Source: Euzebya sp. (GTDB taxonomy: Bacteria; Actinomycetota; Nitriliruptoria; Euzebyales; Euzebyaceae). From it: DNA of 64,000 nucleotides. The stretch's first letter is position 1. Each line of letters opens with the position of its first letter. The position numbers were made by a program, and so were the translations under genes. Of the stretch, positions 52,066-57,204 are shown piece by piece. The notes below the pieces were generated by a model. That model was not told where the DNA came from. It was given only the letters and a program-made list of their open reading frames with translations, and searched no databases. Location: contig NZ_CAXQBR010000094.1 of the NCBI RefSeq assembly GCF_964222135.1, positions 1 through 64,000 on the forward strand. Reading direction: 5' to 3'.

Positions 52066-53028
52066 GTGAGCGTGGGCGTCGTGGACGAGCGCGCCAGGAT
52101 CTGCGCCGCGCAGGCGGCAGGGGACCCGGACGGCGCGCTCGCCGTGGTCGAGGTCCCGGCGACGTCGGCCAACCTCGGACCCGGCTACGACGCGTTCGGC
52201 GTCGCGCTCGACGTCCCCCTGATCGCGGTCGCTCGGCCGCGCGGGGAGGCCCGGGTCACGGTGGCGGGGGCGGGCGCCGACGAGCTCCCCACCGGTGACG
52301 ACAACCTGGTGTGGCGGGCCGTCCAGAGCTGGTGCGCGCACGTGGGGACGGCGGTGCCGGATGTGTCGATCCACGTCGACAGCGCCATCCCCCTCGAGCG
52401 GGGCATGGGGTCGTCGTCGGCCGCGGCGGTCGCCGGCCGGCTGCTGGGCCGCGCGCTGGCAGGCGGCCGCGGCTCCACGGCGGCCCTGCTCGCCCTGGCG
52501 ACGGCGCTCGCGGGGCACCCCGACAACGCCGCCGCCGCCCTGGTCGGCGGGCTGGTGGCCTGCACGCCCGGAGGCGGGGTCACCCGCGTCACCCCGACCC
52601 CCGCGCTCCGCCCGGTGCTGTGCGTGCCCTCCGTCCGCCAGGCGACCTCCGAGGCCCGGGCCGCGCTGCCTGCCGAGGTGCCGCTGGCGACCGCGGCAGC
52701 GGGTGCGGCACGGGCGACCGCCACGTTCGTCGGCCTGGCCGGCCTGGCGCGCCTGGAGGCGACGGCGATGGTCGACGAGCTGCACGAGCCGGCGCGGTTG
52801 GCGTTGATGCCGACCAGCCGCCGGGTGGTGGAGGCCCTCCGCGCGGCGGACGTGCCGTCGGCCCTCTCGGGCGCGGGGCCGAGCGTCCTGGCCGTCGTCC
52901 CGGCGGGGGACGACACCGCGCTGGACCTCGTGCGGCGGGTCGTCGCCGATGCCGGTGCCGACGACCCCGTGGAGCTCGTCCCGACCCGCTGGCACCTGGC
53001 CGGCGCGACGGTGCGCGCCGCGGGCTGA
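52066..53028 (+). CDS. thrB: homoserine kinase
   Basis: The 320-residue GHMP kinase phosphorylates homoserine. It has the N-terminal PATSANLGPGYDAFG (residues 31-45), the ATP loop PLERGMGSSSAAAVAG from residue 109, GHPDNAAAALVGGLVACTP, and the C-terminal GHMP motif SALSGAGPSVLAVVP. GTG 52066 is preceded by a GGAGG-like site. It forms a unit with thrC and lies upstream of rho, the order found in most actinobacteria. Confidence 0.95.
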   Translation: MSVGVVDERARICAAQAAGDPDGALAVVEVPATSANLGPGYDAFGVALDVPLIAVARPRGEARVTVAGAGADELPTGDDNLVWRAVQSWCAHVGTAVPDVSIHVDSAIPLERGMGSSSAAAVAGRLLGRALAGGRGSTAALLALATALAGHPDNAAAALVGGLVACTPGGGVTRVTPTPALRPVLCVPSVRQATSEARAALPAEVPLATAAAGAARATATFVGLAGLARLEATAMVDELHEPARLALMPTSRRVVEALRAADVPSALSGAGPSVLAVVPAGDDTALDLVRRVVADAGADDPVELVPTRWHLAGATVRAAG

Positions 53029-53285: not shown

Positions 53286-55052
53286 ATGGATCGCAGCGTC
53301 CTCGCGCGCAAGCCGATGACGGAGCTGAAGGACATCGCCGCGCACCTCGACATGCGCGGCTACCAGAAGCTCCGCAAGGCCGAGCTGATCGACGCGATCA
53401 TCCAGAGCGGGACCGAGGGGTCCGACGGCGGTGGGGCCGCGCAGCAGACCCTCGCCACCGACGGACCTGACCGGGACCGAGCCTCTGACGGCGGCGGCGA
53501 CACCCGCACGCGGACCCGAACCCGCGACAGGGGCCAGGCCGGTGACGCCGCGACCGACGACGATCGGGCCACCGACGACGATCGGGCCACCGACGATTCC
53601 GTCCGCGACGGTTCCGCCCGCGACGACGGCGCCCGGAAGGTCCTCCCACCCGGTGGGGCACAGCCGGCGGACCGGTCCGAACCCGACCCCGCGCAACCTG
53701 CCCGGTCCGGCGGTCCGAGCGGTCGCCAGGACGACGACGAGGACGACGACCAGTCCGGCCGCAAGCGCCGCAACCGGCGGCGCCGCAACCGCGACCGCCA
53801 GGACGACCGGGCTGGCCAGCAGGGCGGCCAGACGGGTGGCCAGCAGGGTGGCCAGCAGGGCCGCCCCGACCCCTCGAACGGCGGTGGCGGGCAGGGCGGC
53901 GGCGATGCCGGGGAGGTCCGCGCCGGCGTCCTCGACATCCTGCCCGAGGGCTACGGGTTCCTGCGCACCACCGGCTACCTGCCGGGGGAGCGCGACGTCT
54001 ACGTCAGCCAGGGCCAGATCCGCAAGCACGGGCTGCGCCGCGGTGACGTGGTCCAAGGCCCCATCCGGCCGCAGCGCAACAACGAGAAGGTCCCGGCGCT
54101 GCACCACGTGCAGGCCGTCAACGGCGAGGGGCTCGAAGACGGGCAGGTGCCCGCGCGCCCCGACTTCGACGAGCTCCCCCTCATCGCCCCGGAGACCCGC
54201 CTGCCCGTGGCGGCGGACGCCGGTGCGGGGACGCTCGAACGCGTCGTCGACCTGTTCGCCCCGATCGGGGAGGGGCAGCGCGCCCTGGTGTCCGGACCGC
54301 CGTCCGCCGACGGCACGGCCGTGCTCCGGGAGATCGCCGCGTCGCTCGCCGACACCCACCCGGACACCCACGTGATGGCCGTCGTGCTCGACGCCCGGCC
54401 CGAGGACGTGCGCGCCGCGGAGGACGCCGTCGACGGCGAGATCATCTCCTCCACCTTCGAGCAGTCCGCGGAGGACCACGCGCAGATCGCCGAGCTCGCC
54501 CTCGAGCGCGCCCGCCGGCTGGTCGAGCTCGGCCACGACGTCGTCGTGGTCCTCGACTCCGCCACGCGCCTGGCTCGCGCCTACGGGGTCACGTCGTCCA
54601 GCGGCAAGACCATCGCCCCCGACGTGGACGCGGCGTTGCTGTACGGCGTCAAGCGCTTCCTCGCCTCGGCCCGCGCGATCGAGGACGGCGGCTCGCTGAC
54701 CGTCGTCGCGGGGCTGCTGACCGGCACCGGCTCTTCTCTCGACGAGGTGATCGCCCAGGAGCTGCGGCGCACCGCGAACGCCGAGGTCGCCCTCGACGCG
54801 ACGCTGGCGCTGCACCGCATCGACCCGCCGGTCGACGTGCTGCGCAGCTGGACGCGGGAGGCCCCGGTGCTGCAGGACCCCGACGAGCTCCGCGCGGTCA
54901 CGCGGATCCGTCGCGAGCTGGCCGGCAGGGACGCCGCCGCGGTCACCGAGTGGGTCGCCGCGCGGCTCGCCGCCACCGAGGACGCCGCGGCCTTCGCCGC
55001 CGCCGCCCTCGACGCCGACCTCGTCGCCGATCTCGACCCGGAGGCCGTCTGA
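53286..55052 (+). CDS. rho: Rho-like protein with degenerate ATPase site
   Basis: By position and domains this is the actinobacterial rho: an N-terminal LARKPMTELKDIAAHLDMRGYQKLRKAELI, a long charged insertion, the RNA-binding cold-shock-like domain (GVLDILPEGYGFLRTTGYLPGERDVYVSQ), and a RecA-like core of 588 residues in total. But Walker A, normally PPKAGKT, is PPSADGT (residues 338-344) with the lysine lost. DERPEE, with the catalytic glutamate, is DARPED (369-374). Walker B is kept (VVVVLDSATRLARAYG, D424). The R-loop RKIAERR is also absent. It probably cannot hydrolyse ATP normally; it may be a regulator, RNA-binding protein or second Rho. Confidence 0.85.
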   Translation: MDRSVLARKPMTELKDIAAHLDMRGYQKLRKAELIDAIIQSGTEGSDGGGAAQQTLATDGPDRDRASDGGGDTRTRTRTRDRGQAGDAATDDDRATDDDRATDDSVRDGSARDDGARKVLPPGGAQPADRSEPDPAQPARSGGPSGRQDDDEDDDQSGRKRRNRRRRNRDRQDDRAGQQGGQTGGQQGGQQGRPDPSNGGGGQGGGDAGEVRAGVLDILPEGYGFLRTTGYLPGERDVYVSQGQIRKHGLRRGDVVQGPIRPQRNNEKVPALHHVQAVNGEGLEDGQVPARPDFDELPLIAPETRLPVAADAGAGTLERVVDLFAPIGEGQRALVSGPPSADGTAVLREIAASLADTHPDTHVMAVVLDARPEDVRAAEDAVDGEIISSTFEQSAEDHAQIAELALERARRLVELGHDVVVVLDSATRLARAYGVTSSSGKTIAPDVDAALLYGVKRFLASARAIEDGGSLTVVAGLLTGTGSSLDEVIAQELRRTANAEVALDATLALHRIDPPVDVLRSWTREAPVLQDPDELRAVTRIRRELAGRDAAAVTEWVAARLAATEDAAAFAAAALDADLVADLDPEAV

Positions 55053-56116
55053 TGGCCGACCACCCGCCGCACTTCTACGGCGGCCAGGCCGTGCTCGAGG
55101 GCGTGATGATGCGGGGCCGGCGGACGTGGGCGGTCGCCGTGCGACGGCCCGACGGCTCGATCTACCTCGAGCGCCACGAGATCAGCGACTTCCCCCAGCG
55201 CAACCCGATCTGGACCAAGCCGATGCTCCGCGGCATCTGGGGTCTGGTCGACGCGCTGACCATCGGCACGCGCGCGCTGACCATCTCCGCCAACGCGGCG
55301 GTGGAGGACGAGGAGCAGCTCAGCAAGGGGGAGATGGGCGGCAGCCTGCTGATCGCGCTGGCCGCGTTCATCGGCATCTTCATCGTGCTGCCGAACCTCG
55401 GACTGGCCGCGATCGAGGACGCCCTCGGCGGCGGCGACACCGTGCGGTTCCACCTGGTGGAGGGGCTCGTCCGGCTGGTGATCTTCCTGCTCTACCTGCT
55501 GGCCATCTCGGCCCTGAGCGACATCAAGCGGGTCTTCCGCTACCACGGCGGCGAGCACAAGACGATCATGGCCTGGGAGCACGGCGAGCCGCTCGGCGCG
55601 GACCGGATCCAGCCGTACTCCACCAAGCACCCGCGCTGCGGCACGAACTTCCTGCTCATCGTCATGCTGCTCGCGATCGTCGTCTACACGACCGCCGGGA
55701 TCATCATCCCCGCCCCCGACGGCGGGAACTTCTTCGCGTTCCTCGGCTACCAGGTCGGGTTGCGCATCGTCCTGCTGCCGGTCGTGGCCGGCCTGGCGTA
55801 CGAGATCCTGCGCCTCGGCGCCGACCAGTCGAACCCGTTGCTGCGGTGGCTGGCCGTGCCCGGCCTGTGGCTGCAGAAGATCACCACAGCAGAACCCGAC
55901 GACGAGATGGTCGAGGTGGCCATCCGCGCCTTCGAGGCCGTCGTGCCGTCCGGGGACCTCAGCGGGCGGACCGTCGACCTGCCCTCGCCGATCGAGTGGG
56001 GACCTGACACGACCACCGAGGTGGTCGGCCTGCCCAAGCCCGACGGGGCGGTGCCACCGCCGCCCGGCGGCAGCCAGGGGGAACCGGGAACCGACCCGGG
56101 ATCGGCCATCGCGTGA
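55052..56116 (+). CDS. DUF1385 multi-pass membrane protein
   Basis: The 354-residue protein matches DUF1385: [36 protein letters not shown]-like [25 protein letters not shown], two central helices ([34 protein letters not shown]), [38 protein letters not shown], and a final pair of helices. The many invariant Gly/His residues suggest an enzyme, but no activity is known. ATG 55052 shares TGATG with the rho stop. In many bacteria this gene lies between rpmE and prfA; rpmE is missing here. Confidence 0.9.
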
Positions 56117-57204
56117 TCGACCCGTCCATGCGCGCCCGGCTCGAGGACCTCGTCGCCACCCACGCCGAGCTCGAGCAGGCGATGACCGATCCCGAGGTCC
56201 TCGGCGACCAGGAGCGCTACGCCACCACGGCGAAGCGACACGCCGACCTGAGCGAGGTCGTCAGCGCCTGGGGCGAGTACGCCCAGCTGCTCGAGGACGC
56301 CGAGGCGGCCGAGGAGCTGGCTCGCGAGTCCGGCCCGGACGACGCGGCGATGTTCCGGGCCGAGGCGGCTGAGGGGCGGGCGGCCGCCGAGGCGATGGAG
56401 GACCGGCTGAAGGTGCTCCTGCTGCCCAAGGACCCGTTGGACGAGAAGAACGTGATCCTCGAGATCCGGGCGGGCGCCGGCGGGGACGAGGCCGGCCTGT
56501 TCGCGGCAGAGCTCGAGCGCATGTACGTCCGCTACGCCGAGGGCCGGCGGTGGAAGGTGAACCGGCTCAGCGTGTCGGAGACCGGGATCGGCGGGGTCAA
56601 GGAGGTCACCTTCGAGGTCAACGGGACCGGGGCCTACTCGGTCCTGAAGCACGAGTCGGGCGTCCACCGCGTCCAGCGGGTCCCCCAGACCGAGTCCGGT
56701 GGTCGCATCCACACCTCCACCGCGTCGGTCGCCGTGATGCCCGAGGCCGAGGACGTCGACGTCCAGGTCGACCCCAACGACCTGAAGATCGACGTCTACC
56801 GGTCCTCCGGGCCGGGCGGCCAGTCCGTCAACACCACCGACTCGGCGGTGCGCATCACCCACGTGCCGACCGGGCTGGTCGTCGCGATGCAGGACGAGAA
56901 GTCCCAGCTGCAGAACCGCGAGAAGGCGCTGCGGGTGCTGAAGTCACGGCTGCTTCAGGCGGAGCGGGACCGCGTCGCCGCCGAGCGCGCCGACGCCCGC
57001 GCCAGCCAGATCGGCACCGGGGACCGGTCGGAGAAGATCCGCACCTACAACTTCCCGCAGTCCCGGGTCACCGACCACCGCATCGGCTTCACCACCCACG
57101 ACCTGGACGGCGTCCTCGGCGGCGACCTGTCGGAGCTGATCGACGCGCTGAGCGCCCAGGAGCAGACCCAGAAGCTCCAGGCGCTCACCGACGGCGACAC
57201 CTGA
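56113..57204 (+). CDS. prfA: peptide chain release factor 1
   Basis: The 363-residue factor terminates translation at UAA and UAG. It has the N-terminal helical domain, the conserved [20 protein letters not shown], the codon-recognition region around [20 protein letters not shown], and the catalytic GGQ loop (G235-G236-Q237 in [12 protein letters not shown]). GTG 56113 overlaps the DUF1385 stop as GTGA. The methyltransferase gene prmC, usually next, is not here; instead the convergent epimerase gene follows after seven bases. Confidence 0.97.

What the first reader, a model, noticed from the sequence alone, without database searches (positions are those of the whole stretch)
53286..55052. Rho at its standard locus has lost ATPase residues
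The gene sits in the usual thrB-rho-prfA neighbourhood and keeps the RNA-binding domain and Walker B. Walker A, however, reads PPSADGT instead of PPKAGKT, DERPEE has become DARPED, and the R-loop is replaced. Several separate catalytic features are changed at once, with the frame intact and the length normal, so error is unlikely. A housekeeping terminator that cannot use ATP would mean either a second, active Rho elsewhere or Rho used as a passive RNA-binding protein.
Basis: partly seen in the sequence, partly recalled or inferred. Interest (0 to 1): 0.8.

Follow-up and report, generated by a model that had tools for sequence, protein, structure and literature searches.

The report
Euzebya's only Rho lost its motor
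The only copy of the transcription-terminating motor protein Rho found in this Euzebya genome, and in the four related genomes held, keeps its RNA-grabbing part but has lost residues needed to burn ATP and pull RNA, and similar losses occur in other actinobacteria, which makes it a natural test of what Rho can do without its motor.

Summary
Window 53286-55052 encodes a full-length Rho (588 aa) between thrB and DUF1385-prfA. In E. coli numbering it carries K181S, G183D, K184G, E211A, K326S and R347A, and keeps D265, R366 and the RNA-binding domain. These positions, K326 excepted (33 K, 1 R), are invariant in 34 canonical relatives. It is the only Rho found in the genome. All five genomes held of its family (one is a two-contig Euzebya pacifica assembly) have a single Rho without K184 and K326, so error and a hidden second copy are unlikely. 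The gene is not a relic in E. pacifica: against a sister genome its altered core shows 1 non-synonymous and 45 synonymous changes. All 24 canonical-invariant RNA-binding-domain positions are kept, against 64-99 of 133 in the core. Loss of K184, most often to Arg, recurs in at least three other actinobacterial lineages, and one class runs from normal Rho through shortened Rho to genomes without a Rho hit. Most likely these are functional, non-translocating Rhos acting by RNA and perhaps RNA-polymerase binding; that function is inferred. No compensating U-tract terminators, nucleotide-bias change or second Rho was found.

The parts
53286..55052 (+). rho CDS, 588 aa, ATPase motifs altered
53301..53417 (+). 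Rho_N domain (residues 6-44)
   Evidence: Pfam PF07498
53418..53909 (+). low-complexity Arg/Asp/Gly/Gln-rich N-terminal insertion (residues 45-208)
   Evidence: translation; similar stretches in canonical relatives G006 and G030
53922..54131 (+). Rho_RNA_bind (OB) domain
   Evidence: Pfam PF07497; 24 of 24 canonical-invariant OB positions kept
54297..54317 (+). Walker A, PPSADGT in place of PPKAGKT (K181S, G183D, K184G)
54390..54407 (+). DARPED in place of DERPEE (catalytic E211A; arginine-valve R212 kept)
54540..54569 (+). Walker B strand VVVVLDSATR, D265 kept
54594..54656 (+). Q-loop region SSSGKTIAPDVDAALLYGVKR, altered (G288D)
54723..54743 (+). R-loop GTGSSLD, lysine lost (K326S)
54840..54857 (+). 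arginine-finger region LRSWTR, R366 kept, G364W
52066..53028 (+). thrB, upstream neighbour
   Evidence: NCBIfam TIGR00191
55052..56116 (+). DUF1385 gene, start overlaps the rho stop (TGATG)
   Evidence: Pfam PF07136; sequence
56113..57204 (+). prfA, release factor 1
   Evidence: NCBIfam TIGR00019

Best explanation
This is the sole Rho, at the family's conserved locus, of a Euzebya species. It has lost the ATP-driven RNA-translocation motor but persists as a functional protein. Shown here: single copy; RNA-binding-domain invariants all kept; P-loop lysine, catalytic glutamate and R-loop lysine gone in this gene; P-loop and R-loop lysines gone in all five family genomes held; strong selection on the altered core in the E. 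pacifica pair; recurrence of K184 loss in other actinobacteria. Inferred: the protein still folds as a Rho subunit and probably still forms a ring, because a skeleton of core positions (R160, GQR171-173, D210, RPE212-214, R252, D265, K298, R305, SLT312-314, R384) is kept; it binds nascent RNA through the OB domain and arginine-rich N-terminal region; and it acts without translocating, either on the elongation complex (stand-by, allosteric pausing or termination) or as an RNA-binding regulator.
For: One Rho in the own genome and in each of the other four family genomes. G003 is an assembly of two contigs; its smaller contig is 100% identical to the Euzebya pacifica plasmid NZ_CP031166 over the 19 kb compared. 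Positions 184/326: G/S in G000, G/V in G002, R/A in G001 and G003, V/Q in G004; 34 of 34 canonical relatives have K184, and 33 K plus 1 R at 326. OB domain: 24 of 24 invariants kept in all nine divergent Rhos of the class; core: 83, 71, 99, 99 and 64 of 133 kept in G000, G002, G001, G003 and G004. G001 against G003: core dN 0.002, dS 0.261, 1 non-synonymous to 45 synonymous, dN/dS 0.007, against 0.106 for the prfA ORF; neutral expectation rejected, p below 1e-18 by a simple binomial. GC3 of 0.97 in the window core, as in neighbouring genes. NusG KOW domain nearly unchanged in the family. Published: E211A in E. coli Rho is inactivating but spares ATP binding and oligomerisation; E386A in M. tuberculosis Rho abolishes ATP hydrolysis without drastic change of oligomeric state or of ATP or RNA binding, and does not terminate efficiently (PMC4499133, passages read); E386A, D440N and R541A do not sustain growth of M. 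tuberculosis depleted of Rho (PMC5379054, passages read). Stand-by models assume release by allostery, not motor action (PMC8964686, passages read).
Against: No biochemistry or expression data. Selection on the core could be measured only for G001-G003, whose Rho keeps E211 and R366 and has K184R, so it may still bind or slowly hydrolyse ATP. For the other Euzebya pairs the core dN/dS reads 0.66-1.05 (OB 0.11-0.17); dS is saturated there, but this would also fit relaxed selection on the window's own core (48% identity to its nearest relative). In M. tuberculosis an ATPase-dead Rho does not sustain growth, so a non-motor function is not the known essential function of Rho. G004 has lost the C-terminal part and D265, which points to decay. 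No compensating change in U-tract terminators or coding-strand purine content was seen. The structure model failed (pLDDT 40.8), so ring formation is untested.
Confidence: 0.62

Rival explanations
1. Decaying relic: Rho-dependent termination has become dispensable in these lineages, the motor decays first, the RNA-binding half lasts longer, and the gene is on its way out.
For: A graded series exists in another class of the phylum: families f30, f25 and f82 mostly over the cut-off (32 of 34 genomes with a match; two f25 genomes have none); f32 full-length without K184 and with the Q-loop gone or cut; f41 and f72 at about 100-175 bits with a shortened core where aligned; the listed f18, f45 and f56 genomes without a match at 1e-25 (alignments). 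G004 in the window's own family is truncated and has lost D265 too. Core identity among Euzebya species outside the G001-G003 pair is 43-48% against 74-84% for prfA.
Against: The core of G001 and G003 is under very strong purifying selection (1 non-synonymous to 45 synonymous). No stop interrupts the frame in any of the five family genomes and codon bias is normal in the window. The OB invariants are all kept. thrB, an ordinary neighbour, is also only 51-63% identical in the same pairs.
Confidence: 0.2
2. Still an ATP-driven motor with a rewired active site: other residues take over from K184, E211 and K326.
For: D210, R212, E214 and D265 are kept in 17 or 18 of 18 full-length K184-less Rhos (G004 and three f72 rows left out). 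The commonest replacement of K184 is Arg, 16 of 22, which could keep phosphate binding, whereas K336 becomes Arg in only 3 of 22. MtbRho carries Thr at 326 with slight loss (PMC8828861, passages).
Against: In the window protein K184 is Gly, G183 is Asp and E211 is Ala at once; E211A alone is inactivating in E. coli Rho and E386A abolishes hydrolysis in M. tuberculosis Rho. Some relatives lack the Q-loop or a large part of it.
Confidence: 0.12
3. A second, active terminator that is not a Rho homologue has taken over, and this Rho serves only as its RNA-binding partner.
For: Some genomes of the phylum have no clear Rho, and the two sampled show no excess of U-tract terminators either (G216 2 against 2, G134 0 against 0 per 200 kb), so another way of ending transcripts may exist there.
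Against: No such factor was found or searched for systematically; thrB, DUF1385 and prfA are the neighbours of rho in the family genomes, and no other factor gene was recognised at the locus.
Confidence: 0.06

Closest known systems
Canonical bacterial Rho
   Same: Rho_N, OB RNA-binding domain, RecA core, Walker B aspartate, arginine valve and arginine finger; thrB found near rho in 7 of 8 class genomes outside the family that were looked at, DUF1385 and prfA in 2 of the 8 (G006, G046; some of the others end early)
   Different: K181, G183, K184, E211, K326, K336 and R347 all replaced; TIGR00767 score 375 against about 572-618 for the 22 passing Rhos of the same order
M. tuberculosis Rho (PDB 7oqh, best solved match, E 8e-81)
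   Same: Long disordered N-terminal insertion; no lysine at 326 (Thr in MtbRho); described as a weak enzyme (PMC8828861, passages)
Engineered ATPase-dead Rho (E211A, E386A)
   Same: Catalytic glutamate replaced by alanine, as in the window protein
   Different: Laboratory mutants; E386A cannot do the job of wild-type Rho in M. tuberculosis. Here the change is natural and joined by others
Rho-less bacteria (Cyanobacteria, abstract in the listing; some Bacilli, PMC13323073 passages)
   Same: Growth without Rho-driven motor termination (inferred here)
   Different: There the gene is gone; here a gene with an intact RNA-binding domain is retained
Short paralogous Rho (NCBIfam NF041509 paralog_Rho2)
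   Same: Same core family, 329.2 bits
   Different: Below its cut-off (628), not short, and the only copy found

Membership tests
Rho transcription termination factor (TIGR00767 / PRK09376) | Rho_N + OB RNA-binding + RecA core architecture | tested here: met
Rho transcription termination factor (TIGR00767 / PRK09376) | Curated score cut-off | tested here: inconclusive
   TIGR00767 375.5 bits against 509.45 (not met); PRK09376 372.8 against 315 (met)
Rho transcription termination factor (TIGR00767 / PRK09376) | Same locus as the Rho of close relatives (thrB-rho-DUF1385-prfA) | tested here: met
   thrB, DUF1385 and prfA near rho in G000-G004, and in G046 of the same class; G006 has DUF1385 and prfA; in G039 and G050 only the thr genes were found
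Rho transcription termination factor (TIGR00767 / PRK09376) | Walker A lysine K184 | tested here: not met
   Gly; Lys in 34 of 34 canonical relatives
Rho transcription termination factor (TIGR00767 / PRK09376) | Catalytic glutamate E211 | tested here: not met
   Ala; Glu in 34 of 34
Rho transcription termination factor (TIGR00767 / PRK09376) | Walker B aspartate D265 and arginine finger R366 | tested here: met
Rho transcription termination factor (TIGR00767 / PRK09376) | R-loop lysine K326 | tested here: not met
   Ser; note MtbRho has Thr there
Rho transcription termination factor (TIGR00767 / PRK09376) | Primary RNA-binding site residues | tested here: met
   24 of 24 OB invariants; eight OB-site positions listed differ from the relatives' majority only by E for D at 108, which is also E in E. 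coli (site positions recalled)
Rho transcription termination factor (TIGR00767 / PRK09376) | Hexameric ring, RNA-dependent ATPase, termination activity | not testable with these tools
   structure model unusable, pLDDT 40.8; no biochemistry
Short Rho paralogue (NF041509) | Second, short Rho copy, cut-off 628 bits | tested here: not met
   329.2 bits; 588 aa; only copy found

The most novel reading that the evidence does not exclude
Several actinobacterial lineages have independently turned Rho from an RNA-pulling motor into a static RNA- and polymerase-binding factor that ends or pauses transcription by allostery alone, so that the stand-by mode debated for E. coli is the only mode in these bacteria; K184R, in some lineages with Q-loop loss, is the recurrent route.
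Probability: 0.25. Interest if true: 0.92.

Novelty: new variant of a known kind. Interest (0 to 1): 0.76.

Why it matters
Whether Rho ends transcription by pulling RNA or by binding the polymerase and changing its shape is an open debate. Organisms whose only Rho cannot plausibly pull RNA, yet is kept and in one species pair is under strong selection, make the question testable in nature: either termination works without the motor, or Rho has a second job. It also warns that a rho annotation in actinobacteria does not imply Rho-dependent termination, and it gives a graded evolutionary series from full motor to no Rho.

Tried and rejected
Second Rho in the genome: rejected (with the family model down to E 10 the other five hits are 66.4 bits or less; two align only to about positions 137-391 of the model, as F1/FliI-type ATPases would (not checked further), and three are fragments).

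Sequencing error: rejected, since the four other family genomes lose K184 and K326 too, by several different substitutions.

Plasmid-borne Rho: no plasmid record covered 80% of the query (0 of 54 matching records). Phage records were not searched.

Compensation by intrinsic terminators: hairpin plus T-tract scan with a mirror-image control gave, per 200 kb, 0 against 2 in G003, 1 against 2 in G002, 17 against 20 in G004; 0 against 0 in the 64-kb window; in canonical G006, G032 and G039 1/0, 0/0 and 0/0; in G368 3/5, G172 1/1, G216 2/2, G134 0/0. The scanner does find them in 50 kb of E. coli, 11 against 1. No support for compensation.

Purine bias of coding strands, which is weaker in rho-less Bacilli (PMC13323073, passages): 0.492-0.500 in three Euzebya genomes against 0.492-0.505 in three canonical relatives (crude gene calls). 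No signal. Hairpins between convergent genes: samples of 5-14 pairs a genome, no usable difference.

NusG as a partner that might have changed: KOW domain nearly unchanged; a longer linker in the family.

Structure prediction: pLDDT 40.8 with two sequences, not used. No fold search was run.

K184R as pure G+C-driven drift: not excluded. Among the 22 K184-less rows K181 was replaced in 21, by R in 10; K251 in 8, by R in 7; K336 is R in 3 of 19 letters; K184 itself R in 16 of 22. These rows are phylogenetically dependent.

Full report
What is there. The gene at 53286-55052 is an intact 588-codon Rho with Rho_N, OB RNA-binding and RecA-like domains, with thrB upstream and DUF1385 and prfA downstream. 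Its stop codon overlaps the DUF1385 start, a ribosome-binding sequence precedes its ATG, and its core has the same GC3 (0.97) as the neighbouring genes (0.96-0.98). Aligned with E. coli Rho (NC_000913) and 34 canonical Rhos of the same class, it carries K181S, G183D, K184G, E211A, G288D, K326S, K336R and R347A, while T185, R212, D265, R269, R353 and R366 are kept.

Only copy. A protein search and a family-model search of the own genome (97.1% complete, 111 contigs) found one Rho. The same holds in the four other genomes of the family. One of these, G003, listed as the same genus, has two contigs, the smaller identical over the 19 kb compared to the Euzebya pacifica plasmid NZ_CP031166, so the genus is Euzebya. 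The five Rhos score 271-428 bits against TIGR00767, whereas the 22 passing Rhos of the other two families of the order score about 572-618; of the other three genomes there, G028 has a broken frame and G008 and G026 have no match. In the class, 57 of 66 genomes have a match at 1e-30 and 46 pass the cut-off; the 11 below it are the five family members, four others (G036, G051, G056, G065) and two broken or cut genes (G028, G049); nine genomes, of 61-95% completeness, have no match.

Different substitutions, same losses. K184 is G, G, R, R, V and K326 is S, V, A, A, Q in G000, G002, G001, G003, G004. E211 is A, C, E, E, E. G001 and G003 also lack ten Q-loop residues, and G004 ends before the arginine finger and has D265H. 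All nine divergent Rhos of the class keep 24 of 24 OB-domain invariants but only 64-108 of 133 core invariants, the five family members 64-99. For scale, E. coli Rho keeps 16 of 24 and 113 of 133.

Selection. G001 and G003 differ at 65 of 368 codons of OB plus core, but by one amino acid. In the core that is 1 non-synonymous against 45 synonymous changes (dN/dS 0.007), tighter than the prfA (0.106), thrB (0.157) and DUF1385 (0.306) ORFs in the same pair (the yardstick ORFs were taken stop to stop and so include some 5' extension). So a core with K184R, a gap in the Q-loop and K326A is strongly conserved: it does something. Between the other Euzebya species the core is only 43-48% identical while the OB domain is 87-91%, prfA 74-84% and thrB 51-63%; core dN/dS reads 0.66-1.05 against 0.11-0.17 for the OB domain, but dS is saturated there. 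The core changed fast on the way to each present form; whether the window's own form is now constrained cannot be measured for lack of a close relative.

Not only here. In 396 genomes of the phylum at least 90% complete, drawn evenly, 353 have Rho at 1e-50 and 335 pass the cut-off. Low scorers and their neighbours were then looked at. In the class of G368, 60 of 120 genomes have a match at 1e-25 and 32 pass the cut-off. Family f32 (8 genomes with a match, all below the cut-off) has full-length Rho with the Q-loop missing or cut short and K184R in 7, A in 1; f72 (3) and f41 (15) have a still shorter core, and the 11 of these 18 that were aligned read GVRPEE or GARPEE in place of DERPEE. The 8 aligned f41 rows keep the Walker A lysine, so K184 is not always what goes. 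The 20 genomes listed without a match (of 60) belong to f18, f45, f56 and, twice, f25; of seven genomes without a strong match that were re-searched at 1e-14 (six of these 20, and G282), three show a 69-86-bit hit to the ATPase part only. In f57, 38 of 41 genomes pass the cut-off, but G520, G492, G516, G245 and G504 have K184R, with species keeping K184 in two of the three genera concerned. G036, in another family of the window's class, has K184T; G051 has E211A with K184 kept. By taxonomy this is at least four separate losses of K184 (f1, G036, f57, f32/f72). The Rho tree alone does not prove that: it places G036 beside f1 and G277 with support 0.07, and groups the six f57 rows together (0.92), which may be long-branch attraction or a transferred copy (FastTree, OB plus core). 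Of 134 aligned Rhos (E. coli included), a set enriched for odd ones, 22 lack K184: R 16, G 2, A 2, T 1, V 1; E211 is kept in 119.

What is kept and what goes. Among 18 full-length K184-less Rhos, positions kept in at least 17 include R160, D163, P167, G171-R173, D210, R212, P213, E214, R252, E255, G257, D259, D265, K298, R305, G311-T314, L345 and R384; positions kept in 30% or fewer include K181, K184, N275, P279, S281, S286, M327, F332, K336, G339, R347 and R353. So much of the fold and part of the nucleotide-facing surface stay, while the phosphate lysine and residues of the RNA-translocation loops go.

Meaning. E211A is inactivating in E. coli Rho and E386A abolishes hydrolysis in M. tuberculosis Rho while leaving ATP binding, RNA binding and oligomerisation largely intact, and E386A does not terminate efficiently in vitro (PMC4499133, passages); in M. 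tuberculosis E386A, D440N and R541A do not sustain growth (PMC5379054, passages). The same passages note that the need for ATPase in vitro has been disputed, an earlier group having reported complex disruption with non-hydrolysable analogues. The window Rho combines E211A with loss of the Walker A lysine and glycine, so normal motor termination is very unlikely. I infer a non-translocating RNA-binding factor. One attractive form is stand-by action on the polymerase, which the literature describes as allosteric and not motor-driven (PMC8964686, passages). NusG's KOW domain is nearly unchanged in the family, compatible with this but also used for other contacts (recalled).

Tests that gave no help. 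U-tract terminators are not enriched in these genomes or their canonical relatives (positive control); coding purine content does not differ; the structure model failed.

Literature. Ten full-text searches, most with capped listings, returned no title or abstract that describes a natural motor-less sole Rho or Rho in Euzebya; 'Euzebya' with 'transcription termination', and 'rho' with 'thermoleophilia' and 'transcription termination' (a guess at the other class), gave 0 papers each. The main survey of Rho distribution (D'Heygere et al. 2013, recalled) is not held; as I recall it, it says that most, not all, Rhos keep the motifs, so single odd sequences may have been seen before. E. coli residue roles beyond those in the passages cited, and the name of the phylum, are recalled.

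Noticed in passing
L069-L073 against L055-L068 (NusG loci): NusG of all five family genomes has a longer, charged NGN-KOW linker than the other NusGs of the order that were aligned.
   Followed up: partly
L077, L079, L262-L265 (family f57): Altered Rhos (five with K184R, one with SDAGKT) occur in four genera, three of which also hold species with K184-keeping, high-scoring Rho, and the altered ones group together in the Rho tree: possible transferred or ancient second lineage.
   Followed up: partly
L085-L093, L266-L275: One actinobacterial class shows a graded series from canonical Rho through Q-loop-less Rho and short-core Rho to genomes without a Rho match.
   Followed up: partly
L078 (G262): A Rho reading frame with two in-frame TGA codons; may be a broken gene or an assembly error.
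   Followed up: no
L045 (G028) and L278 (G452): rho split over two neighbouring or overlapping frames; likely frameshift or assembly error.
   Followed up: no
L101-L200: The high-GC actinobacteria sampled, with canonical, altered or no Rho, show no excess of hairpin plus U-tract terminators, so how transcripts end in the Rho-less ones is unclear.
   Followed up: partly
L051 (E. pacifica plasmid): Annotated type I-E CRISPR genes on the large plasmid (listing).
   Followed up: no
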